The notes beneath the pieces were generated by a model that was not told where the DNA came from, did not search any database, and saw only the letters and a program-made list of their open reading frames with translations. DNA of 64,000 bases from Byssovorax sp. (GTDB lineage Bacteria > Myxococcota_A > Polyangia > Polyangiales > Polyangiaceae), in contig JANYGI010000011.1 of the NCBI GenBank assembly GCA_025362495.1, positions 22,830 through 86,829 on the forward strand. The letters are read 5' to 3'. Both the position numbers and the translations under genes were made by a program. Numbering within the stretch: position 1 is the first letter of the stretch; each line of letters starts with the position of its first letter. Below are positions 38,045-58,492 of this stretch, piece after piece.

Positions 38045-38335
38045 GTGTCAGCCTCAGTCCTCATCTACCTCACCGATTGGTGCCCGTACTGCCAGCGCGC
38101 GAAGGCGCTGTTGACGAAGAAGAAGGCTGCCTTCACCGAGGTCGACGTCGATGATCGCGCCGACCTGCGGAGCTGGCTCGTCTCGGCTTCAGGCCAGCGG
38201 ACGGTGCCGCAGATCTTCATCAACGGGCAGCCCATGGGCGGCTCGAGCGAGCTCGACGCGCTCGATCGGCAAGGCAAGCTCGACCGCCTCCTCGCCGTGG
38301 CTCCGCCGCCGGACGCTCCCAAACTGCCTGTTTGA
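38045..38335 (+). CDS. Glutaredoxin
   Basis: 96 residues from a GTG. The redox motif CPYC (residues 13-16) lies in YLTDWCPYCQRAKALL, with the cis-Pro TVPQIFING and the glutathione-binding GGSSELDALD. This is the dithiol Grx3-like class. It stands alone, divergent from clpB. Confidence 0.93.
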   Translation: MSASVLIYLTDWCPYCQRAKALLTKKKAAFTEVDVDDRADLRSWLVSASGQRTVPQIFINGQPMGGSSELDALDRQGKLDRLLAVAPPPDAPKLPV

Positions 38336-38468
38336 AAGGCGATCCGTGCGCTCCTCCACGCGGGGAGCGCTCGGTCACATCGGCTTCCCGCCGGGGAGGT
38401 GCGGACCTTCTCTCCTTTCTTTGATAGCGTGCGAAAGAAACGACGCGGTCGCACGTCCCATCCTCCTC

Positions 38469-40094
38469 ATGACCTCTCGACCTGAACTCGTCCCCTCGCC
38501 AGGCTCGGCGGCCGGGGTGGCCTCTGCCCTCGTGTCCGACGCGCTCGTGGGCAAGCGGGTCGACAAGTACGAGATCGTTCGCGTCATCGGCCGCGGCGGC
38601 ATGGGCACCGTCTACGAGGCGCTCAACACCACCATCGGCAAGCGCGTCGCGATGAAGTTCGTCGACGCCGAGACGGCCCAGAGCAAGGACTCGATCGCTC
38701 GCTTCCAGCGCGAGGCCGAGGCCGCGAGCGCCGTCGAGAGCGCCCACATCGTCGAGATCTTCGACTCCGGCGTGGCCGACGACGGCATCCCGTACATCGT
38801 GATGGAGCTCCTCCGCGGCGAGGATCTCGGCCACCGGATCAAGCGCTGCGGCCGCCTCGAGATCGGCGAGGCCGTGCACGTCGTCGCGCAGATCCTCCGC
38901 GGCCTGCACCGCGCCCACGAGGCCGGGATCGTTCATCGCGATCTCAAGCCCGACAACATCTTCCTCGTCGATCGCGACGACGATCAGAGCTTCGCCAAGA
39001 TCCTCGATTTCGGGATCTCCAAGGTGCAGCGCCAGGGCGGCGTCCCGGTGCACACGCTCACGCGGCAAGGCACCGTGCTCGGCACCCCGTTCTACATGTC
39101 GCCCGAGCAAGCGCAGGCGCTGCCCGACATCGATGGGCGCACCGATCTGTGGTCGGTCGGCGCCATCCTCTACGAGTGCCTCACGGGGCGGCCGCCCTAC
39201 AGCGGCACGTCGTACGAGCAGGTGATCGTCAACATTTGCATGCACGACGCCGAGGACGTGCGCGCTCACAATCCAGGCGTCTCCGAGGCGATCGCGCGGG
39301 TGATCAGCAAGCTGCTCGCGCGCGATCGCGTCGAGCGCTTCGCCACCGCGCGCGAGGTGCTCGAGGCGCTGAAGCTCGCGACGGGCGGGGCCATCTCCAC
39401 GCGCTCCGGGGCGATCCCGGCCGAGGAGCGCGATCCGAGCCACGCGTCGTCGCCGGACTTTCGCCTCACGCCGCGCGGCGAGAACAAGCCCGCGCCCGGG
39501 ACCACGCCCGGATCGCGAGCCGACGCCGCGCCGATCGAGGTGCGCTCCGCGAGCCCCTCGAAGGCCGGCTGGTCGACGAGCCGCCGCGCGAGCAACCGCG
39601 AGAAGCGAGCGTTCGCGCTGATCGCGATCTCGGCGCTGCTCGCGGGCAGCCTCGGCGCGTTCCTCTTCGTGAAATCCCGCGCGCCGCTGCCGACGCCTCC
39701 GCCGGCTCACAGCGACGAGATCCACGTGCAGCTCCAGGCCAACGTGGCCGGGGCGCGCTTCGTCGTCGACGGCGCCCCGGTGCAGAGCGGCGTCCTCAAG
39801 GGGCAAAAAGGCGAGGTGAAGCGCGTGCGCGTCGAGGCCGAGGGCTACGCGCCGAGCGAGCTCGACGTGACGCTCGCCTCGGACGCCGAGCCGGTGCACA
39901 TCGTCCTCGCGGCGACGACGTTGACGGCGTCAACCGCGTTGCCCGTCGTGTCCCCCGGCGCCGAGGTCGCGTCGGCGCGCGCGGCCGACCCGAAGCGGCC
40001 ACACGACGGCGCGAAGCCCACGGTCAGCGCGGCGGCGCGGCCCACGGCGACGCCCGGAGTCGGCGGCGGCCAGCTCAAGTTGAAGACGGATTGA
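38469..40094 (+). CDS. Membrane Ser/Thr protein kinase with PEGA-like tail
   Basis: 541 residues. The Hanks-type kinase has Gly-loop IGRGGMGTVYEA (40-51), Lys63 in VAMKF, the catalytic loop HRDLKPDNIF, DFG in ILDFGISKV and the APE-like SPEQAQ. A Pro/Ser-rich juxtamembrane region leads to one TM helix (about 378-398, FALIAISALLAGSLGAFLF). An extracytoplasmic PEGA-like domain follows (HVQLQANVAGARFVVDGAPV to VHIVLA) and a low-complexity tail. This is a typical myxobacterial sensor kinase. TAGCGT lies 37 nt upstream. The following gene also has PEGA-like and TPR parts. Confidence 0.92.
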   Translation: MTSRPELVPSPGSAAGVASALVSDALVGKRVDKYEIVRVIGRGGMGTVYEALNTTIGKRVAMKFVDAETAQSKDSIARFQREAEAASAVESAHIVEIFDSGVADDGIPYIVMELLRGEDLGHRIKRCGRLEIGEAVHVVAQILRGLHRAHEAGIVHRDLKPDNIFLVDRDDDQSFAKILDFGISKVQRQGGVPVHTLTRQGTVLGTPFYMSPEQAQALPDIDGRTDLWSVGAILYECLTGRPPYSGTSYEQVIVNICMHDAEDVRAHNPGVSEAIARVISKLLARDRVERFATAREVLEALKLATGGAISTRSGAIPAEERDPSHASSPDFRLTPRGENKPAPGTTPGSRADAAPIEVRSASPSKAGWSTSRRASNREKRAFALIAISALLAGSLGAFLFVKSRAPLPTPPPAHSDEIHVQLQANVAGARFVVDGAPVQSGVLKGQKGEVKRVRVEAEGYAPSELDVTLASDAEPVHIVLAATTLTASTALPVVSPGAEVASARAADPKRPHDGAKPTVSAAARPTATPGVGGGQLKLKTD

Positions 40095-40137
40095 AAACCG
40101 TTCCCATCCGGCGGGGAAAGCGCCAATCTTCGCGCCG

Positions 40138-41559
40138 ATGACGCTGGGGCGAGAGCACGTGGGCCCTCTCCGGGCTGCGATGGCTGCCCTGTGCTGCGCG
40201 CTCACGCTCGCTCCCATCGTGGCGCGCGCGCAGCCCGCCGCGGCGCCGTCGCCCGCTTCGTCCGCGGCCGCCGACACGTACAAGCTCCACATGGAGAACG
40301 GCGTGAAGCTGTTCGAGGATCGCAACTACGACGCCGCGCGCGCCGAGTTCCGCGCCGCCTACGACGCTCGGCCGCGGGCCAACCCGCTGATCAACATCGC
40401 CCTCGCGCACAAGGCCGAGTTCAACTATCCGGCGGCGATCGGCGCGCTCGAGACGGCGCTCGCGAAGCATCGGGACACGATGGGCGCGGGCGACATCAAG
40501 GCCGCCGAGGGCGAGCTCAAGGACATGCGCGCCCTGCTCGCGCGGGTGAAGCTCGTCGTCACGCCGGCGAGCGCGAAGGTCACCATCGACGGCGAGGCGC
40601 TGACGTCGTCGGCCCTCGATCAGCCGATCCCGCTCGGCCCGGGGACGCACCGGATCGCGGCCTCCGCCGAGGGGTTCGCCACGATCGAGCAGCGCTTCAC
40701 CGTGGCCAGCGGCGAGTCGACGGAGGTGGCGCTGAACCTCGTCGCCGACCAGGGGACGATCGCCATCGAGGCGCCCGATCCGCGGATGACGATCGCGGTC
40801 GATCAGCATGTGATGAGCACGGGCACGTGGACGGGGATGCTCGCGCCCGGCTCGCACCTCGTGCAGATCTCGGGGACGGGCGGGCAGCCGTTCACCGCCG
40901 ACATCCTCGTCGTCGCGGGGAAATCGCTGACCGTGCGCCCCGGTACCGATCTCTTCCCGCCGCTGCCGCCGCTCCCGTTGCCGCGCAAAGATCTGCCGGT
41001 CTTGCCGCCGAAACATGGCCTTTACGTGATCGCGATGGCCTCGCTGCTGTTCCCGACGCGCTACCCGACGGGGTTCCCGCGGCCCGAGATCAACAGCGGC
41101 GGCGCGGGCGGCGCGCGCGTCGGCTATCAGGTCAACGGCGTCGCGGGCTTCGATGGTTTCTTCGAGCACTCGAGCCTCTTCACGCCGACGAAGACCGACG
41201 CGACGAGCGGCTACACGCTGGTCTCGAACCGCATCGGCGCCGATCTCCGGCTGATGACGCCGGGCAAGGTGGTGCGCGCCGTCGGCGTAATCGGCGGCGG
41301 CGTGGTGCTCGACTCGCTCTCGTTCGAGAAGAGCAACCCCGGCTGCATGCCGGTCGAGTGTGAGAAGGGCTCGGGCGCCGATCCATTCTTGCTCCTCGAA
41401 GCGGGCCTCGAGCTCGAGTTCAGCGGCGTGCTGGTGGGCGTCGCGCTCGAGAGCGAGTTCCAGTCGTCACGCGGGATCTCGGGCGCGACGCCGCCGTTCA
41501 GCAACGATCCGCTGATCCACTTGGGCCCCGGCTTGCGTATCGGATACGCCTTCTGGTGA
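40138..41559 (+). CDS. TPR/PEGA-domain outer-membrane protein
   Basis: 473 residues. The signal peptide ends near ARAQ. TPR-like helices follow (YKLHMENGVKLFEDRNYDAARAEF, NPLINIALAHKAEFNYPAAI), then a PEGA-like beta-domain (KLVVTPASAKVTIDGEALTSS), a Pro-rich turn (LPPLPPLPLPRKDLP), and a C-terminal beta-strand region with alternating hydrophobics that resembles a small outer-membrane barrel. It is likely an envelope scaffold. Only 43 bp separate it from the kinase gene, so the two are probably co-transcribed. Confidence 0.75.
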   Translation: MTLGREHVGPLRAAMAALCCALTLAPIVARAQPAAAPSPASSAAADTYKLHMENGVKLFEDRNYDAARAEFRAAYDARPRANPLINIALAHKAEFNYPAAIGALETALAKHRDTMGAGDIKAAEGELKDMRALLARVKLVVTPASAKVTIDGEALTSSALDQPIPLGPGTHRIAASAEGFATIEQRFTVASGESTEVALNLVADQGTIAIEAPDPRMTIAVDQHVMSTGTWTGMLAPGSHLVQISGTGGQPFTADILVVAGKSLTVRPGTDLFPPLPPLPLPRKDLPVLPPKHGLYVIAMASLLFPTRYPTGFPRPEINSGGAGGARVGYQVNGVAGFDGFFEHSSLFTPTKTDATSGYTLVSNRIGADLRLMTPGKVVRAVGVIGGGVVLDSLSFEKSNPGCMPVECEKGSGADPFLLLEAGLELEFSGVLVGVALESEFQSSRGISGATPPFSNDPLIHLGPGLRIGYAFW

Positions 41560-51034: not shown

Positions 51035-51643
51035 ATGAGCGACGACGAGCCCCCGAACCGAGCGCAGCGCGACGCGGAGGACGCGAGCGTGATGGCGCGC
51101 ATCCGCGCGGGCGACGACTCGGCGCTCGCCGTGCTCTACGATCGCTACGCGTCGCTCGCCCTCGGCATGGCCCTGAAGATCGTCCGCGATCAGAACGAGG
51201 CGGAGGACGTCGTCCACGACGCGTTCATCGCCGTGGTCGAGCGCGTCGATCAGTTCCGCGCCGATCGCGGCAGCCTCGTCGCGTGGCTCGTCACCATGGT
51301 CCGCAACCTCGCGCTCGATCGCGCGCGACGCCGGACGCGACGCGCGCAGATCCTCGACGACGAGCTGCGCCACGAGCCGCCGCAGCCGGTGCTCGATCCG
51401 GAGCAGATCTCGTGGCTCGAGCGCGAGCGCGTCGCGGTGCGCGAGGCGATGGGCAAGCTCTCGGCGTCGCAGCGCGAGACGCTGGAGATCGCGTTCTTCG
51501 AGGGGCTCAGCTACCCGGAGATCGCCGCCCGCGAGAACGTGGCCCTCGGCACAGTGAAGTCGCGCGCAGCCCGGGCCCTCTGCGCCCTCCGCGCGGCCCT
51601 CGACGGGACGATCTCCCCCGATCCAGGCCCGCCGAGCGAGTAG
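51035..51643 (+). CDS. ECF-type RNA polymerase sigma factor
   Basis: 202 residues. Region 2 carries the core- and -10-binding helix (QNEAEDVVHDAFIAVVERVDQF; WLVTMVRNLALDRARR). Region 4 carries the -35-binding HTH (LEIAFFEGLSYPEIAAREN, LGTVKSRAARAL). Region 3 is absent, as in all ECF sigmas. No anti-sigma gene follows. The terminator of engB lies 12 nt upstream, so expression depends on read-through or on a promoter inside the terminator (TTGACG occurs in its loop). Confidence 0.9.
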   Translation: MSDDEPPNRAQRDAEDASVMARIRAGDDSALAVLYDRYASLALGMALKIVRDQNEAEDVVHDAFIAVVERVDQFRADRGSLVAWLVTMVRNLALDRARRRTRRAQILDDELRHEPPQPVLDPEQISWLERERVAVREAMGKLSASQRETLEIAFFEGLSYPEIAARENVALGTVKSRAARALCALRAALDGTISPDPGPPSE

Positions 51644-51926: not shown

Positions 51927-54686
51927 ATGTCCGAGTTCTCCGGCCAGGTTACGCACGTCGAGTGGTCTCTGACGCCCCTCTGGTTGATCCCGCTGCTGCC
52001 TTTTCTGGGCGCAGTGATCAACGCGATCTTCGGGCGCTATCTTCAGAAGTCCGACTTCGGACGCGAGACGAGCAAGCGCCTCCACATCGGCAGCTTCGGC
52101 GTCAGCGCCGTCGCGCTCGGGGCGATGCTCGGGGCCTTCGCGATCGTGGTGGCGAACTTCGCCAAGCTCATCTCGCTCGAGCCCGGGCATCGTTACCTCT
52201 ACACGCACGCCTGGCAGCTGCTCCGCATCGGCTCGCTCGACGTGAATTTCTCGTTCGCGATGGATCCGCTCTCGGCGCTGATGACGCTGATCATCACCGG
52301 CGTCGGCTCGCTGATCCACATCTACGCCTTCTCGTACATGGAGACGGAGCCGGCCTACTGGCGCTTCTTCACGTACCTGAACCTCTTCGTCTTCTCGATG
52401 TTGCTGCTGGTCCTCGGCGACAACTTCATCGTGATGTTCTTCGGCTGGGAGGGCGTCGGGCTCTGCAGCTACCTGCTGATCGGCTTCTGGTACAAGGACT
52501 ACAAGAAGGCCTCGGCGGGGATGAAGGCCTTCGTGGTCAACCGCGTCGGCGACTGGGGCTTCATCTGCGGCCTCGGCCTGCTGTTCTGGGGCCTCGGCGG
52601 CGCGTGGGTCGAGAACGGTCGCTACAGCCCGTCGTACGACGCGCGCTTCATCGCGGTCCAGGCCGAGGCGCTCGGCGAGAGCGAAGGAGAGGCCGAAGAG
52701 AAGGGCGAGCACGCGAAGTCGGTCGGCGTCTTCGAGAGCGCCGCGTTCGCCGACGAGCACGGCGACAAGGACGACCACGATCACGCCGTCAACGGCAACG
52801 ACAAGCCCAACTCGCGGCCCATCCACGGCGGCCCGAAGGTCGACAAGGACGGCGGCCTCCACAAGGTCGAGAAGCGCGCCGGCGACAAGGGCATGCTCAC
52901 CTTCACGAGCCACCCGAACGCGCGCGTCTACATCGATCGCGCCGTGCAAGATCCCGGTCAGCTCACCGGGCTGAACCCGCCGAAGGCGGATGCGATTTCG
53001 CCCTTCCTCCGCTTCTCGCTCTCGGCTGGCCCGCACAACATCATCATCGTCCCCGGCGACGGCGCCATCGTCGCGGGCGACACCCGCGACGATCCCGCGT
53101 CGCTCGCGTCGAACCAGGTCGCGACGATCGACCACGTGATGATCGAGGGCGGCGAAGAGACCGTCATCGCCACCGTCGGCTCGACGCTCACCTTCCGCGA
53201 GCTCCACGATCAGCTCGTGATCAAGGACGGCTCGGGGAAGGCTTTCCTCAAGGAGGCGCTCAAGCAGAAGACGACGTGGGGCGGCATCTCGCTGATCACG
53301 TTCGCGTGCCTGCTCTTCTTCGTCGGCGCCACGGGCAAGAGCGCGCAGATCCCGCTCTACGTCTGGCTGCCGGACGCCATGGCCGGGCCGACGCCCGTGT
53401 CCGCGCTCATCCACGCCGCGACCATGGTCACCGCCGGCGTCTACATGATCGCGCGGCTGAGCTTCCTGTTCTCGCTCAGCCCCACGGCGGGCGGGATCAT
53501 CGCGCTCACCGGCGCGTCGACGGCGCTCTTCGCCGCGACGATCGGCTTCTTCCAGTACGACATCAAGAAGGTCCTCGCCTACAGCACGGTGAGCCAGCTC
53601 GGCTTCATGTTCATCGGCGTCGGCGTCGGCGCGTACTGGGCGGCCGTCTTCCACCTGATGACGCACGCCTTCTTCAAGGCCTGCTTGTTCCTCGGATCGG
53701 GCTCCGTCATCCACGGCATGCACGCCGTCGAGCACGACGAGGTCGCGGTCCAGGATATGCGCAACATGGGCGGCCTGCGCCGCGTGATGCCGACGACGGC
53801 GCTCACGTACCGCATCGCTTGCCTGGCGATCACCGCGGCGCCGATCCCGTTCTTCGCCGGTTTCTGGTCGAAGGACGAGATCTTGTGGAAGGCCTTCACC
53901 ACCACGAGCACCGGCGTCGTGCCCGGCGCGGTCGTGTACCTGATGGGCCTCGCCGCCGCGCTCGGCACCTCGTTCTACATGTGGCGCAGCTACTACCTCA
54001 CGTTCGAGGGGCCGCACGCTCGCAAGGAGATCGCGAAGAAGGTCCACGAGTCTCCCGGCGCGATCATCTACGTGCTGGCGATCCTCGCGGTGCTCTCCAC
54101 CGTGGCCGGCTTCGTGTTCGGCTTCTCCAAGCACATCATCGGCGGCAGCGGCGAGCCGCTCCTCGAGGACTGGCTGCACCCCGTCCTCGCGCACGCCGAG
54201 TCCACCTTCGCGAAGGAGAGCCTCGGGCTCGAGCTCGCGCTGATGGCGCTCTCGGTCGGCGGCGCGATCGGCGCCTGGTTCATCGCCAAGCGCCGCTACG
54301 GGGCCGATCGCCCGGCCGACTGGGCCGCGCAGGAGCGCAAGCTCCCCGGCTTCCTCACGATGCAGAACAAGTACTACGTCGACGAGATCTACGCGGCGAC
54401 GATCGTGCGCGGCTTCATGGCGCTCCGCCTCGTCTTCGCCGAGATGGATCGCTGGATCGTCGACGGCCTCGTCAACGGCCTCGCCGTCGTCGCCATCAGC
54501 GTCTCGTGGGTCAACAACGCCATCGACACGTACATCGTCGACGGCGCGGTGAACTTCGTCGCCGAGGGCACGCTCAACGCGGGCAAGAAGCTCGGCCAGC
54601 TCCAGACGGGCCGCATCCAGAACTACGTCTACGGCCTCCTCGGCGGCGTCGCGTTCTTCGCCATCGTCCAGTACTTCCTCAAGTGA
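51927..54686 (+). CDS. nuoL: Complex I subunit NuoL with large extracytoplasmic insert
   Basis: 919 residues against about 610-660 in most bacteria. The antiporter-like core is intact: Glu175 in FFGWEGVGLCSYLLIGFW, Lys471 in GATGKSAQIPLYVWLPDAM, HAATMVTAGVYMIAR, and the long C-terminal amphipathic helix region. Between the Glu and Lys helices, residues ~240-445 are extra: an acidic/His-rich stretch (DEHGDKDDHDHAVNGNDK, ~276-293), then a PEGA-like beta-domain (MLTFTSHPNARVYIDRAV...SAGPHNIIIVPGDGAIVAG, ~323-384) and a further beta segment. The start at 51927 is set by family alignment. It heads nuoLMN, detached from nuoA-K. Confidence 0.95.
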   Translation: MSEFSGQVTHVEWSLTPLWLIPLLPFLGAVINAIFGRYLQKSDFGRETSKRLHIGSFGVSAVALGAMLGAFAIVVANFAKLISLEPGHRYLYTHAWQLLRIGSLDVNFSFAMDPLSALMTLIITGVGSLIHIYAFSYMETEPAYWRFFTYLNLFVFSMLLLVLGDNFIVMFFGWEGVGLCSYLLIGFWYKDYKKASAGMKAFVVNRVGDWGFICGLGLLFWGLGGAWVENGRYSPSYDARFIAVQAEALGESEGEAEEKGEHAKSVGVFESAAFADEHGDKDDHDHAVNGNDKPNSRPIHGGPKVDKDGGLHKVEKRAGDKGMLTFTSHPNARVYIDRAVQDPGQLTGLNPPKADAISPFLRFSLSAGPHNIIIVPGDGAIVAGDTRDDPASLASNQVATIDHVMIEGGEETVIATVGSTLTFRELHDQLVIKDGSGKAFLKEALKQKTTWGGISLITFACLLFFVGATGKSAQIPLYVWLPDAMAGPTPVSALIHAATMVTAGVYMIARLSFLFSLSPTAGGIIALTGASTALFAATIGFFQYDIKKVLAYSTVSQLGFMFIGVGVGAYWAAVFHLMTHAFFKACLFLGSGSVIHGMHAVEHDEVAVQDMRNMGGLRRVMPTTALTYRIACLAITAAPIPFFAGFWSKDEILWKAFTTTSTGVVPGAVVYLMGLAAALGTSFYMWRSYYLTFEGPHARKEIAKKVHESPGAIIYVLAILAVLSTVAGFVFGFSKHIIGGSGEPLLEDWLHPVLAHAESTFAKESLGLELALMALSVGGAIGAWFIAKRRYGADRPADWAAQERKLPGFLTMQNKYYVDEIYAATIVRGFMALRLVFAEMDRWIVDGLVNGLAVVAISVSWVNNAIDTYIVDGAVNFVAEGTLNAGKKLGQLQTGRIQNYVYGLLGGVAFFAIVQYFLK

Positions 54687-54781: not shown

Positions 54782-56935
54782 ATGTCCAACGTTCGCCAGT
54801 CCAAGATGCTCAAGCTCATCGGACCTCTGTTGCTCGCGCTCGGCCTCGTGCTCGGCCTCGGCGGGCGCGCCCGGGCCGAAGGCGCCGCAGACGCCGACCC
54901 GCGAGCCCGCGGCCGGATCGACGTTCACGTGGCCGACGCGCACTCGTCGCAGCGGGTCGAGCTCACCGGCACCGAAGCCGAGCTGAGCGGCCAGTTCGTG
55001 ATCGAGAACGACGGCACGGGCCCGCTCAACGTGACGCGGGTCGCGGTGCGGACCTCGGCGACGGATCCGCGCACGCCCCCGGGCGTGACGGCCGAGCTCG
55101 AGGGCGGCGCGACGGCGCAGCTCGCGCCCGGCCAGTCGAAGAACGTCATCGTGAAGTGGCACGCCGGCGCCGCCCGCGCGCGCGAGCTCTACGGCCACGT
55201 GATCGTCGAGTCGGACTCGGTCGGCCACGGCGACGAGCCGGCGCGCCCCGCGGCCATCGGCATCCACGCCGAGCGCGGCTACGGCCTCGGCTTCATCGGC
55301 CAGCACATCCTCTCGATCCTGACGTTCCTGCCGCTCCTCGGCGTGGTCGCGATCTTCATCGCCCACCTGATGAACTACAAGGACGACAAGAACCTCCGCT
55401 TCATGGTCGTCGTCCTGATGGCCATCAACCTCGTCCTCGCGACCTGGCTCTACGTCCGCTTCGACAACGGCTTCACCAAGGTCGACGGCAACGAGGGCTA
55501 CCAGTTCATCGAGCACGGCGTGTGGATCCGCTCGCTCGGGGTCGAGTACTTCGCCGGCGTCGACGGCATCTCGATCACGATGGTGTTCCTCACCGCGCTG
55601 ATCTCCTTCGTCGGCGTCCTCGCCAGCTACAGCGTGAAGGATCAGCTCAAGGGCTACTTCGCCATGTACTGCCTGCTCGTGACGGGCATGTTCGGCGTCT
55701 TCATCAGCCTCGACCTCTTCCTCTTCTACGTGTTCTGGGAGGTGATGCTCCTGCCGATGTACTTCCTCATCGGCATCTGGGGCGGGCCGAAGCGCCAGTA
55801 CGCGGCGATCAAGTTCTTCATCTACACCCTCGCCGGCAGCGTGTTCATGCTGCTCGGGTTCATCTGGTTCTACCTGAACTGCGACCCGTCCTATCTCTCC
55901 GACGGGCACGCGACGCTGCGCACCTTCTCGATGCCCGAGCTCGCGCGCGTCGCCTGGGCCTCGAAGGGCCTGACCATCCTCGGCCTCAGCGCCGTCAAGC
56001 TCGTGTGGGTGTGGTTGTTCGTGGGGTTCGCGATCAAGATCCCGATGTTCCCCTTCCACACCTGGCTGCCTGACGCGCACGTCGAGGCGCCGACGGCGAT
56101 CAGCGTCATCCTCGCCGGCGTGCTCCTGAAGATGGGCACCTACGGCATCCTGCGGATCAACTTTTCACTGCTGCCCGAGGCGACGCAGTGGGGCGCGGGG
56201 GCGATGGCCGTGTTCGGCGTCGTCAACATCCTCTACGGCGCCTTCTGCGCGATGGCGCAGAAGGACCTGAAGAAGCTCGTCGCGTACTCGTCGGTCAGCC
56301 ACATGGGCTTCTGCCTCCTGGCGATGGCCGCGCTCACGCCGCAGGGCATCCAGGCCTGCCTCGTGCAGATGTTCAACCACGGTCTCATCACCGGGATGCT
56401 CTTCTCGCTCGTCGGCGTGATCTACGACCGCGCTCACACGCGTGACATCGACAAGTTCGGCGGCCTCGCCAGTGAGATGCCGCTCTACACGGCCTTCATC
56501 GGCTTCGCCTTCATGGCGTCGCTCGGCCTCCCCGGCCTCTCCGGCTTCTGGGGCGAGGCGATGACGTTCATCGGCGCGTTCCCCCGCTACCGCGCGCTGA
56601 CGATGCTCGCCGCGACGGGCGTGATCATCACCGCCGCGTACCACCTCTGGGCGCTGCAGCGGATGTTCCTCGGCAAGTTCCGCGAGGAGTGGCGCCAGAG
56701 CAAATACCTCGAGCCCACGGGCGGGAAGTTCCCCGAAATCAACGGCCGCGAGCTCCTCACCATCGCGCCGCTCGCGGTGCTGGTGCTGATGCTCGGCTTC
56801 TGGCCGCGCCCGCTCCTCAACGCGACGGACAAGGGCGCCCTCGAGGCCCACCGCGCGGTCGACAAGCCCGGTCAGGCGCAGATCGCCGAGACCCCTCCGA
56901 AGCCGGCCGACAGCGTCTTCGCCTCGGGGAAGTGA
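54782..56935 (+). CDS. nuoM: Complex I subunit NuoM with signal peptide and Ig-like domain
   Basis: 717 residues against about 500 in E. coli. Residues 1-32 are a cleavable-type signal (LIGPLLLALGLVLGLGGRARA). Residues ~45-163 form a beta-sandwich (RVELTGTEAELSGQFVIEND, NVTRVAVRTS, LAPGQSKNVIVKWHAG, ELYGHVIVESD) resembling Ig/ASH-type adhesion folds. The NuoM core starts near 170 with the key Glu in FYVFWEVMLLPMYFLIGIWGG and Lys in FVGFAIKIPMFPFHTWLPDAH. If the N-terminus of the core faces the periplasm, as in the family, the extra domain is periplasmic. The gap to nuoL is 95 bp. Confidence 0.93.
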   Translation: MSNVRQSKMLKLIGPLLLALGLVLGLGGRARAEGAADADPRARGRIDVHVADAHSSQRVELTGTEAELSGQFVIENDGTGPLNVTRVAVRTSATDPRTPPGVTAELEGGATAQLAPGQSKNVIVKWHAGAARARELYGHVIVESDSVGHGDEPARPAAIGIHAERGYGLGFIGQHILSILTFLPLLGVVAIFIAHLMNYKDDKNLRFMVVVLMAINLVLATWLYVRFDNGFTKVDGNEGYQFIEHGVWIRSLGVEYFAGVDGISITMVFLTALISFVGVLASYSVKDQLKGYFAMYCLLVTGMFGVFISLDLFLFYVFWEVMLLPMYFLIGIWGGPKRQYAAIKFFIYTLAGSVFMLLGFIWFYLNCDPSYLSDGHATLRTFSMPELARVAWASKGLTILGLSAVKLVWVWLFVGFAIKIPMFPFHTWLPDAHVEAPTAISVILAGVLLKMGTYGILRINFSLLPEATQWGAGAMAVFGVVNILYGAFCAMAQKDLKKLVAYSSVSHMGFCLLAMAALTPQGIQACLVQMFNHGLITGMLFSLVGVIYDRAHTRDIDKFGGLASEMPLYTAFIGFAFMASLGLPGLSGFWGEAMTFIGAFPRYRALTMLAATGVIITAAYHLWALQRMFLGKFREEWRQSKYLEPTGGKFPEINGRELLTIAPLAVLVLMLGFWPRPLLNATDKGALEAHRAVDKPGQAQIAETPPKPADSVFASGK

Positions 56936-56938
56936 CCC

Positions 56939-58492
56939 GTGGAATCCACACCCCTCAACAACGTCGAGAGCCTCCGGTACTTCACGCCGGAGCTCGTGCT
57001 GATCGCGGCGGTCTTGCTGCTGATCATCTGGGACCTCGTCGCTCGCGACAAGAAGACGAAGCTCGTCGGCCTCGTCGCGATCTCGCTGGCCGCGGTCGCG
57101 GTCTCGGGCGGGATGAGCGCCTTCCTGCTCTCGCGTGAGCTCGAGCCGAAGAACCTGTTCTACGGCCTGCTGGCCTTCGATCGGTTCTCGAACATGTTCC
57201 GGATCCTGTTCGCCGCCGTCACCGGCACGATCGTGATCTTCTCCATCCCCGCGATCCCCGAGGGCCACACGCTCCCCGACCGCGGCGTGCGCGACGACAA
57301 GCGCGACCAGGGCGAGTTCTTCACGCTCCTGATGGTCCTCACCCTCGGGATGAACCTGATGGCCGAGAGCCGCAGCCTCCTGATGATCTACCTCTCGCTC
57401 GAGATCGTCAGCGTCATCAGCTTCGTGATGGCGGGCTTCAAGATCAACGACGCGAAGTCGAGCGAGGCCGCGCTGAAGTACGTGATCTTCGGCGGCGTCG
57501 CCTCGGGGATCATGCTCTACGGCATGAGCTGGATCTTCGGCGTCACCCAGTCGCTGTACCTGGGCGAGTGCGCGGTGAAGATCCACCAGATGACGGTCGC
57601 GCAGGGCAAGGTCCCCGAGGTCGTCTTCGTCGGCACGATCTGCATGCTCGCGGGCTTCGGCTACAAGATCAGCGCGGCGCCGTTCCACATGTGGACGCCC
57701 GACGTCTACGAGGGCGCGCCCACGCCGGTGACGGCCTTCCTTTCGGTCGGCCCCAAGGCGGCTGGCTTCGCGGTGCTCGTGCGCTTCTTCGCCGACGCCC
57801 TCGGCGCGCAGGACGTGCAGATGATCGGCACCACGGTGATCGACTCGCCGTGGCCCGTCGTCGCCGGCTGCCTCGCGATGGCGACGATGACCATCGGCAA
57901 CCTCTCGGCGCTCAGCCAGGACAACGTGAAGCGCATGCTCGCGTACTCGAGCGTCGCCCACGCCGGCTACATGCTGCTGGGCTTCTCGGTCTTCAGCCAC
58001 CTCGGCGTGGCGTCGATCGTCTTCTACATCGTGACGTACTGCTTCATGAACCTCGGGGCCTTCCTCGTCGTCATGATGGTCGCCGAGAAGAGCAACGGCG
58101 ACGAGTCGATCGCGGCCTTCCGCGGCCTCGGTCGTCGCGCCCCGATCACCGCGGGCGTGATGGCGCTGTTCCTGTTCTCGCTCACCGGCCTGCCGCCCTT
58201 CGCCGGCTTCATCGGCAAGTTCTACCTGTTCTGGGCCCTGCTGAAGTCGGGCGGCGCGTGGAACTGGACGATCGCCGTCGTGGGCATGCTCAACAGCGTC
58301 GTGTCGCTCTTCTATTACTCGCGCGTCGTGCGAGCGATGTTCCTCGAGAAGAGCGAGAACACGACCCCCGTCGACGTGCGCAAGCTCTTCGGCACGCTGA
58401 GCGTCGTGCTCGCCGTCCCGACGCTGGTGCTCGGCATCTACTGGGCCCCCGTCTACGACTTCGTCGAGCGCTCCATCTCCATGGTCCGCTGA
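56939..58492 (+). CDS. nuoN: Complex I subunit NuoN
   Basis: 517 residues from a GTG 3 nt after the nuoM stop. The antiporter-like core is normal: Glu in LLMIYLSLEIVSVISFVMAG, Lys in ALKYVIFGGVASGI and GYKISAAPFHMWTPDVYEGAPTP, and ending helices with FIGKFYLFWALLKSG. Unlike NuoL and NuoM it has no extra domain, apart from slightly long loops (PEGHTLPDRGVRDDKRDQGE). It completes the distal proton-pumping arm encoded here. Confidence 0.95.
   Translation: MESTPLNNVESLRYFTPELVLIAAVLLLIIWDLVARDKKTKLVGLVAISLAAVAVSGGMSAFLLSRELEPKNLFYGLLAFDRFSNMFRILFAAVTGTIVIFSIPAIPEGHTLPDRGVRDDKRDQGEFFTLLMVLTLGMNLMAESRSLLMIYLSLEIVSVISFVMAGFKINDAKSSEAALKYVIFGGVASGIMLYGMSWIFGVTQSLYLGECAVKIHQMTVAQGKVPEVVFVGTICMLAGFGYKISAAPFHMWTPDVYEGAPTPVTAFLSVGPKAAGFAVLVRFFADALGAQDVQMIGTTVIDSPWPVVAGCLAMATMTIGNLSALSQDNVKRMLAYSSVAHAGYMLLGFSVFSHLGVASIVFYIVTYCFMNLGAFLVVMMVAEKSNGDESIAAFRGLGRRAPITAGVMALFLFSLTGLPPFAGFIGKFYLFWALLKSGGAWNWTIAVVGMLNSVVSLFYYSRVVRAMFLEKSENTTPVDVRKLFGTLSVVLAVPTLVLGIYWAPVYDFVERSISMVR

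What the first reader, a model, noticed from the sequence alone, without database searches (positions are those of the whole stretch)
52644..53261. NuoL carries a ~210-residue extra domain between its key Glu and Lys helices
Seen: NuoL is 919 residues. The conserved TM5-type Glu (residue 175) and the Lys of GATGKSAQ (471) are 296 residues apart, against about 85 in E. coli NuoL (E144 to K229). The extra ~240-445 segment is hydrophilic, with a His/Asp-rich run and a PEGA-like beta-domain. Family knowledge: the loop after the sixth helix faces the periplasm. Inference: a periplasmic domain sits on the distal end of complex I and could bind metal, cell wall or a partner. Combined with the NuoM extension this looks like a decorated respiratory complex that I do not know to have been described.
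Basis: partly seen in the sequence, partly recalled or inferred. Interest (0 to 1): 0.85.

Follow-up and report, generated by a model that had tools for sequence, protein, structure and literature searches.

The report
Complex I with a periplasmic coat
A myxobacterial genome encodes a second respiratory complex I with extra domains on three membrane subunits (NuoH, NuoM and NuoL) that are predicted to face the periplasm; of 49 genomes of its class found to carry the NuoL domain, 33 lack the proton-pump lysine motif but still carry the domain, so it likely has a job of its own.

Summary
Observation confirmed. NuoL (51927-54686, 919 aa) has 296 residues between TM5 Glu175 and TM7 Lys471, against 85 in E. 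coli. A 190-residue insert (residues 228-417; 52608-53177) splits the TM6-TM7 loop before the conserved TLTFRE motif; helix counting puts it in the periplasm. It holds a strand, a variable disordered linker and a PEGA-like beta domain. It is part of something larger. NuoM next door has a signal-like helix plus an Ig-like domain. The matching NuoH, on another contig, has a lipobox, a TIG-like domain and an HtrA-type PDZ domain. The insert was found only in the window's family and one sister family (49 of 289 class genomes; 22 of 377 phylum genomes). Of the 49, 16 keep the NuoL GKSAQ motif, and 14 of these have the matching NuoD. The other 33 lack the motif and none shows that NuoD, yet insert and NuoM domain stay (48 of 49), as does the NuoH extension (48 of 49). 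In degenerate pairs, insert and NuoH extension evolve under stronger constraint than their membrane cores. Best reading: a periplasmic docking or anchoring platform whose role is separable from proton pumping. The partner is unknown. Metal binding is not supported: linker His runs from 0 to 23.

The parts
51927..54686 (+). nuoL, 919 aa; ordinary complex I L-subunit core with all seven proton-path residues checked
52449..52451 (+). codon of the TM5 Glu (residue 175)
   Evidence: sequence
52608..53177 (+). the insert, residues 228-417, between TM6 and the conserved TLTFRE loop motif; predicted periplasmic
52644..52664 (+). DARFIAV strand (residues 240-246), first conserved piece of the insert
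52677..52880 (+). disordered His/Asp/Glu-rich linker (residues 251-318), pLDDT under 50; about 32-137 aa long in the 30 of 43 relatives measured
52887..53177 (+). PEGA-like beta domain (strands at residues 321-326, 333-336, 360-366, 368-375, 399-406, 411-417)
53178..53213 (+). ancestral loop motif GSTLTFRELHDQ after the insert
53337..53339 (+). codon of the TM7 Lys (residue 471) of GATGKSAQ
   Evidence: sequence
54782..56935 (+). nuoM, 717 aa, with the key residues checked
54782..55297 (+). N-terminal extension of NuoM (residues 1-172): signal-like helix 9-25 and Ig-like domain 46-164 (pLDDT mostly 69-92)
   Evidence: the 50 listed solved chains align from residue 162 or later
56939..58492 (+). 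nuoN, 517 aa, ordinary length, the four key residues checked are present
51035..51643 (+). ECF sigma factor gene upstream of nuoL; a 65-72% identical gene lies near nuoL in nine other genomes

Best explanation
The insert in NuoL is predicted to lie in the periplasm and, with the extensions on NuoM and NuoH, likely forms a docking or anchoring platform on the outer face of a second complex I, with a role separable from proton pumping. Shown by sequence: the three extensions; a second set of complex I genes dispersed over four contigs (A-D, H, I-K, L-N); presence of the decorated subunits in relatives in which the matching NuoD was not found and the proton-path residues are absent; stronger constraint on the NuoL insert and the NuoH extension than on their membrane cores in degenerate pairs. 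Predicted: periplasmic side (helix count, signal-like helix, lipobox) and beta folds. Inferred: that the four gene clusters make one complex, that the three extensions touch each other, and that they hold the complex to an envelope partner, most likely through the HtrA-type PDZ domain of NuoH, with the NuoM and NuoL beta domains extending the binding surface along the arm. Untested: the partner, and that the window's own complex pumps.
For: Topology: by my count of the helices in the model (broken TM12 counted once) 15 transmembrane helices precede the long lateral helix. That helix lies on the N-side between TM15 and TM16 (PMC3274701, passages seen), so the TM6-TM7 loop is on the P-side. NuoM has a signal-like helix before its domain. 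The NuoH extension has a lipobox Cys in 10 of 10 aligned rows (a further one, L105, was left out and lacks it) and a PDZ domain over the Pfam cut-off (PF13180, 5.5e-8) that matches DegP-like chains (2e-14). Linkage: of the 49 class genomes with the NuoL insert, 48 have the NuoM domain, against 12 of the other 240 (Fisher 3.8e-42), and 48 have a NuoH-extension match at E 1e-50 or better, against 32 of the other 240 (counted from its table). In degenerate loci the genes stand as H'-L'-M'. Separability: 33 of 49 lack GKSAQ; matching NuoD (70% identity or more) in 14 of the 16 with the motif and 0 of the 33 without (Fisher 1.8e-10). Constraint: the insert has lower dN/dS than the rest in 19 of 20 degenerate pairs; in g9 and g4, insert 0.09-0.26 against core 0.28-0.46 and NuoH extension 0.04-0.19 against core 0.09-0.34, 6 of 6 pairs each.
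Against: The NuoM domain is not more constrained than its core (lower dN/dS in 2 of 5 pairs). The contrast with intact genera is not clean: the insert is less constrained than the rest in g13 (6 of 6 pairs) and g22 (1 of 1) but more so in g31 (3 of 3). Some degenerate pairs have high overall dN/dS (0.85 for L115/L129, 0.65 for L105/L131), so not every lineage shows strong selection. The NuoH extension is found in 32 genomes where the insert was not, so the three need not act as one unit. No complex was modelled. The insert model is only moderate (beta domain pLDDT 67-88 but 42-56 at residues 381-400; 49-67 around TM7; mean 68.6). Absence of NuoD rests partly on fragmented assemblies (G277 gave no NuoD of any kind, G192 only a fragment). 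No partner is identified.
Confidence: 0.55

Rival explanations
1. Supercomplex dock: the domains hold complex I next to a periplasm-facing redox partner (complex III, alternative complex III or a cytochrome c) so that electrons or substrates pass quickly.
For: The decorations are on NuoH, NuoM and NuoL of an enzyme that in 16 of 49 genomes still has the TM7 lysine motif.
Against: In 33 of 49 genomes the domain stays although the motif is absent and the matching NuoD was not found. A redox dock should then have no client, unless it serves the ordinary complex I; 27 of 28 genomes searched had at least 3 PF00361 matches, which fits such a set being present.
Confidence: 0.15
2. Ratchet-like accretion: the domains are neutral or stabilising add-ons like supernumerary subunits, and the degenerate copies are on their way to loss.
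For: Linker length and His content vary widely; membrane cores decay by degrees in relatives; two degenerate pairs have dN/dS of 0.65 and 0.85.
Against: Long open frames persist in 33 genomes of many genera, dN/dS is 0.24-0.59 in the other 18 degenerate pairs and lower in the insert in 19 of 20, and a lipobox-TIG-PDZ protein with a barely recognisable NuoH core is kept in other families of the class.
Confidence: 0.15
3. Metal-binding loop: the His/Asp-rich linker buffers or senses periplasmic metal at the tip of the complex.
For: Up to 23 His in the linker of some relatives and His-rich repeats in L013, L014, L025, L027.
Against: 0-2 His in the five Sorangium-type linkers (P0017, P0018, P0020, P0022, P0023); the linker is disordered in the model and the most variable part.
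Confidence: 0.06
4. Envelope-stress link: the HtrA-type PDZ domain of NuoH senses unfolded or mislocated envelope proteins, and the neighbouring ECF sigma factor adjusts complex I to envelope state.
For: DegP-like PDZ; an ECF gene 65-72% identical to the window's lies near nuoL in Minicystis (L009), both g38 genomes and all six g18 genomes examined, which are degenerate.
Against: At 45% identity or more the ECF gene was found in 10 genomes only, the window's included, and not in the Sorangium loci (79 sequences searched; weaker hits were dropped by the script). No anti-sigma factor was looked for.
Confidence: 0.12

Closest known systems
NuoL of E. coli complex I
   Different: E. coli has 85 residues between the two key residues and no insert. 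E. coli NuoM (509 aa) and NuoH (325 aa) are far shorter than the window's NuoM (717 aa) and the matching NuoH (668 aa from its likely start).
[quoted passage not shown] Desulfitobacterium hafniense; PMC11238625, passages seen)
   Same: No nuoE, F or G was detected beside the decorated set's genes on C87, C156 and the window.
   Different: D. hafniense has one 11-gene operon (same paper). Here the genes are dispersed and H, M and L carry extra domains. A second nuoE-nuoF pair on contig C17 might serve it, so the 11-subunit label is unproven.
Insertions in other complex I subunits, such as the 94-residue G-loop of E. coli NuoG (PMC8357420, passages seen)
   Same: A lineage-specific insert in a conserved core subunit.
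   Different: The G-loop is in the peripheral arm; here membrane subunits carry domains predicted on the P-side.
PEGA domain (PF08308)
   Same: Similar motif order (TFTSHPGARVY...SPF...AG.H..VIVPG), beta-rich model, one relative hits Pfam PEGA at 2.3e-6.
   Different: 17 of 18 members, the window's included, do not hit it; several carry an extra Cys-bounded loop inside the domain.

Membership tests
Complex I subunit NuoL | PF00361 and PF00662 above cut-off | tested here: met
   237.7 and 69.4 bits
Complex I subunit NuoL | Key residues E144, K229, H254, H334, H338, K342, K399 (E. coli numbering; the list is recalled) | tested here: met
   all seven present in the window
Complex I subunit NuoL | NuoL fold with lateral helix and TM16 | tested here: met
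   (predicted model; lateral helix and TM16 at low confidence)
Complex I (holoenzyme) | Matching A, B, C, D, H, I, J, K, M, N in the genome | tested here: met
   C156, C46, C87 and the window. That they form one complex is inferred: I and J-K are 59-71% identical to L017, whose I, J and K lie upstream of a decorated NuoL; H is 51% identical to L028; D co-occurs with the intact decorated NuoL
11-subunit complex I | No NuoE, F, G partners | tested here: inconclusive
   none detected beside the decorated set's clusters on C87, C156 and the window, but a second nuoE-nuoF pair on C17
PEGA domain PF08308 (NuoL insert) | Pfam match above the gathering score in the window's domain | tested here: not met
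   no match; 1 of 18 relatives at 2.3e-6. It resembles PEGA and is not filed as a member
Ig-like domain (NuoM extension) | Pfam match above the cut-off in the window's domain | tested here: not met
   window best DUF1573 at 0.05; among 12 members DUF1573 in 6 and HYDIN-like Ig in 4 at E up to 1, best 2.1e-4. The Ig-like label rests on the model's strands and these weak hits
TIG/IPT domain (NuoH extension, first part) | Pfam match | tested here: not met
   no TIG match in own NuoH or L135; the label is my reading by eye from recalled motifs
PDZ domain (NuoH extension, contig C46) | Pfam match above the cut-off | tested here: met
   PF13180, 33.4 bits against 27
Lipoprotein (NuoH extension) | Lipobox Cys at the end of a signal-like stretch | tested here: met
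   present in own NuoH and 10 of 10 aligned rows; L105 lacks it. Lipidation itself is not testable here

The most novel reading that the evidence does not exclude
In the Polyangiaceae a respiratory complex I was turned into an envelope machine: its H, M and L subunits acquired a periplasmic coat (lipid anchor, TIG-like, HtrA-type PDZ, Ig-like and PEGA-like domains), the coat became the function under selection, and in many lineages the redox arm and the proton channels were then shed, leaving a proton-dead H-L-M membrane scaffold that still displays the coat. The window shows the stage at which coat and pump coexist.
Probability: 0.4. Interest if true: 0.92.

Novelty: new variant of a known kind. 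Interest (0 to 1): 0.82.

Why it matters
Complex I is among the best studied enzymes of bioenergetics, and I found no report of a bacterial form with folded P-side domains on NuoH, NuoM and NuoL (searches, in a library that lacks most subscription papers). A series of living genomes seems to run from an ordinary pump, through a pump with a periplasmic coat, to a coat on a dead pump. That would be a rare visible case of a respiratory complex being put to another use. It offers natural NuoL, NuoM and NuoH variants without the proton-path residues, and it gives a concrete question that can be tested in cultured Sorangium or Minicystis: what does the coat bind?

Tried and rejected
Metal binding as the conserved role: rejected on linker variability. 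Artefact or frameshift: rejected; the frame is open and 42 proteins share the region. Widespread insert: rejected within the phylum. Single or several origins of the degenerate state: not settled. The NuoM tree allows one loss (71/73 support; 27 motif-less, 18 intact and 3 outgroup rows). The insert tree (32 motif-less and 19 intact rows) needs 4 changes, at least 2 forced by starred branches, but one clade is not rejected (AU p 0.0997). Literature on PEGA function (listing only) gave nothing usable. Sequence profiles of the NuoL insert and the NuoM domain found no convincing solved relative. I first took the weak hits for ordinary decorated NuoL; reading them showed the motif-less copies. The 285 of 289 hits of the NuoH-extension profile at 1e-3 are not a count of extensions: many hits near 1e-7 are probably other PDZ proteins, so I counted E 1e-50 or better; G281, an insert genome, has only 4.1e-8. 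Seven weaker or insert-less loci were checked: a degenerate NuoH core is detected in L153 (3e-61), L157 (2e-43), L159 (5e-12), L158 (2e-10), L156 (3e-10), barely in L155 (3e-4), not in L154; no NuoL or NuoM relative was detected in any of the seven.
Full report

Where the insert sits. The loop after TM6 reads LGGAW, then 190 extra residues (228-417), then GSTLTFRELHDQ, which matches LGTLNFREM in the E. coli loop. Relatives without the insert mostly have a Glu-Lys gap of 117-150; L044 has 167 and three loci 82-85. The 19 loci L008-L025 and L027 have 217-364. L028 has 186, and L036 has 213 from a repeat-rich linker without the beta domain. By my count the model has 15 transmembrane helices before the long lateral helix, the broken TM12 counted once. 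In E. coli that helix lies on the N-side between TM15 and TM16 (PMC3274701, passages). By parity the TM6-TM7 loop is on the P-side, the periplasm.

Anatomy of the insert. A conserved strand (residues 240-246), a linker of about 32-137 residues with 0-23 His in the 30 of 43 proteins measured, pLDDT under 50 at 251-318, and a beta domain with six strands at pLDDT 67-88, except 42-56 at residues 381-400. The region around TM7 is itself modelled at only 49-67. The beta domain looks like PEGA, but Pfam PEGA is met by 1 of 18 relatives (2.3e-6) and not by the window.

Two more decorated subunits. NuoM begins with a signal-like helix (9-25) and an Ig-like beta domain (46-164, pLDDT mostly 69-92); solved NuoM chains align from residue 162 or later. 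A second set of complex I genes lies on three other contigs of this draft genome: nuoA-B-C-D on C156, nuoH on C46, and nuoI-J-K on C87. The last are 59-71% identical to L017, whose I, J and K lie upstream of a decorated NuoL. That NuoH starts with a lipobox signal, a domain that I read as TIG-like (by eye; no Pfam TIG match) and a PDZ domain (PF13180, 5.5e-8; DegP-like chains 2e-14) before its first transmembrane helix. NuoI has an extra C-terminal Fe-S motif (PF04060, 2.7e-8). In the single-contig genome G270 the parts are dispersed too: nuoL near 12.39 Mb, the NuoH extension near 12.33 Mb, nuoD near 14.43 Mb. An ordinary second complex I is encoded on C46 and C96, with a NuoL gap of 113. L028 carries NuoH and NuoM with N-terminal extensions and I, K, L and N on one contig. 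In L015, L018 and L024 I, K, L, M and N are clustered.

Distribution. The insert profile (A1) hits 49 of 289 class genomes, 46 in the window's family and 3 in a sister family, one match each, and 22 of 377 phylum genomes, all in the same two families (the two samples overlap). A protein search with the insert region found 42 proteins, all with PF00361; with the NuoM extension 107, all with PF00361. The NuoM domain profile hits 60 of 289: 48 of the 49 insert genomes (not G275, whose contig ends there) and 12 of the other 240. The NuoH-extension profile matches at 1e-50 or better in 48 of the 49 (not G281) and in 32 of the other 240, with weaker full-length matches in more families. This suggests that NuoH was decorated first and NuoL last, but the order was not tested on a tree.

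The decorated subunits outlive the enzyme. Of the 49 genomes, 16 keep GKSAQ in the insert-bearing frame (window, L083-L092, L099, L101, L102, L120, L123) and 33 do not (a few of the 33 frames are cut by contig ends after TM7). In a residue table of 16 motif-less NuoL none keeps the full set (L106 keeps the Glu, L111 the Lys, and some keep a His; alignment of such divergent rows is uncertain). Of 14 degenerate NuoM none keeps K234 (L103, L104, L106, L107 keep E407, L104 keeps K265, L107 keeps E144). Of 13 degenerate NuoH none keeps the full acidic set (L104 keeps E157, several keep E216). Yet the 14 NuoM shown keep a hydrophobic start and the Ig-like domain (by eye; profile hits). In the 13 degenerate genomes whose NuoH was read the N-terminal extension is present, with the lipobox Cys in 12 (L105 lacks it). 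The genes stand as H'-L'-M' (L135, L138), as H', K', L', M', N' in L139, or with L' and M' as one frame (six g18 genomes, L107, L108). The matching NuoD at 70% identity or more is found in 14 genomes, all among the 16; it was not found in G181 and G211 of the 16, nor in any of the 33 (Fisher 1.8e-10). G277 gave no NuoD at all and G192 a fragment, so assembly gaps play a part. Of 28 of the 49 searched, 27 have at least three PF00361 matches; G263 has one.

Selection. In 20 degenerate pairs (for g18 only the first 6 of 15) the whole-frame dN/dS is 0.24-0.85, and the insert is lower than the rest in 19 of 20. In g9 and g4, the NuoL insert is lower than the core in 6 of 6 pairs and the NuoH extension in 6 of 6, one of them almost equal. 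The NuoM domain is lower in only 2 of 5. Among intact genera the insert is higher than the rest in g13 (6 of 6) and g22 (1 of 1), and lower in g31 (3 of 3). Synonymous sites are near saturation in distant pairs, so the close ones carry most weight.

Origins of the decay. The NuoM tree allows a single origin. The insert tree nests the six g18 rows and G238 with four intact Sorangium rows at 98/98 and needs 4 changes, but the AU test does not reject one clade (p 0.10). So one loss is not excluded.

Mechanism. The best-supported reading is a periplasmic platform on the P-side of H, M and L that docks or anchors an envelope partner. It does not seem to depend on pumping: relatives keep it where pumping residues are absent and the redox subunit was not found, and within degenerate genes constraint is strongest on the added domains of L and H. 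The HtrA-type PDZ domain points to binding of a protein C-terminus in the envelope; this step is inference. In the window's organism the enzyme part looks intact, so coat and pump would coexist. Rivals are listed with their tests.

Literature. Searches for periplasmic insertions, NuoH with PDZ, Polyangia or Myxococcota complex I, supernumerary extensions and loss of key residues listed no paper that by title or abstract describes this. I saw listings only, plus passages of PMC8357420, PMC3274701, PMC12361115 and PMC11238625; neither of the last two holds a word beginning with Myxococc. The library lacks most subscription papers.

Noticed in passing
L103, L125, L130, L131, L138, L153, L157: The degenerate module (or H' alone in L153 and L157) lies within a few kb of the ATP synthase genes atpG-atpA, which face it on the other strand, in seven loci of six genera.
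   Followed up: partly
window 51035-51643; L009, L097, L098, L118, L119, L121, L122, L124, L134, L142: An ECF sigma factor gene 65-72% identical to the window's lies near the decorated nuoL in these loci, in intact and degenerate genomes alike (L121 and L142 are the same genome).
   Followed up: partly
L107, L108, L118, L119, L121, L122, L124, L134: Degenerate NuoL and NuoM are one open frame of 1258-1341 codons.
   Followed up: partly
L095:10298-11320 (own contig C87): NuoI of the decorated set has an extra C-terminal Fe-S cluster motif (PF04060), so electron input may differ.
   Followed up: no
L160 (own contig C17): A second nuoE-nuoF pair without a detected nuoG; possible input module of the decorated complex or part of another enzyme.
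   Followed up: no
window 38151-41559: A Ser/Thr kinase gene followed by a protein with a real Pfam PEGA domain (PF08308, 5.9e-8).
   Followed up: no
G082:C43, G101:C1 and C9, G124:C21, G278:C196, G170:C14: PF00361 clusters and NuoD hits (40-44% identity) that seem to fit neither the ordinary nor the decorated set, perhaps a third complex I type.
   Followed up: no
L036:9587-12577: An Anaeromyxobacter-type NuoL with a tandem HAAPAEH repeat in the same loop but no beta domain (gap 213), apparently an independent growth of the loop.
   Followed up: no
G263 (L100): Only one PF00361 match in the whole genome although it keeps a motif-less decorated NuoL; may be an incomplete assembly.
   Followed up: no
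L048:5939-8107: A NuoH with a signal-like N-terminus and a TIG-like stretch but no PDZ seen by eye, in a genome whose NuoL gap is 148; the NuoH-extension profile did not match it. Possibly an early stage of decoration.
   Followed up: no
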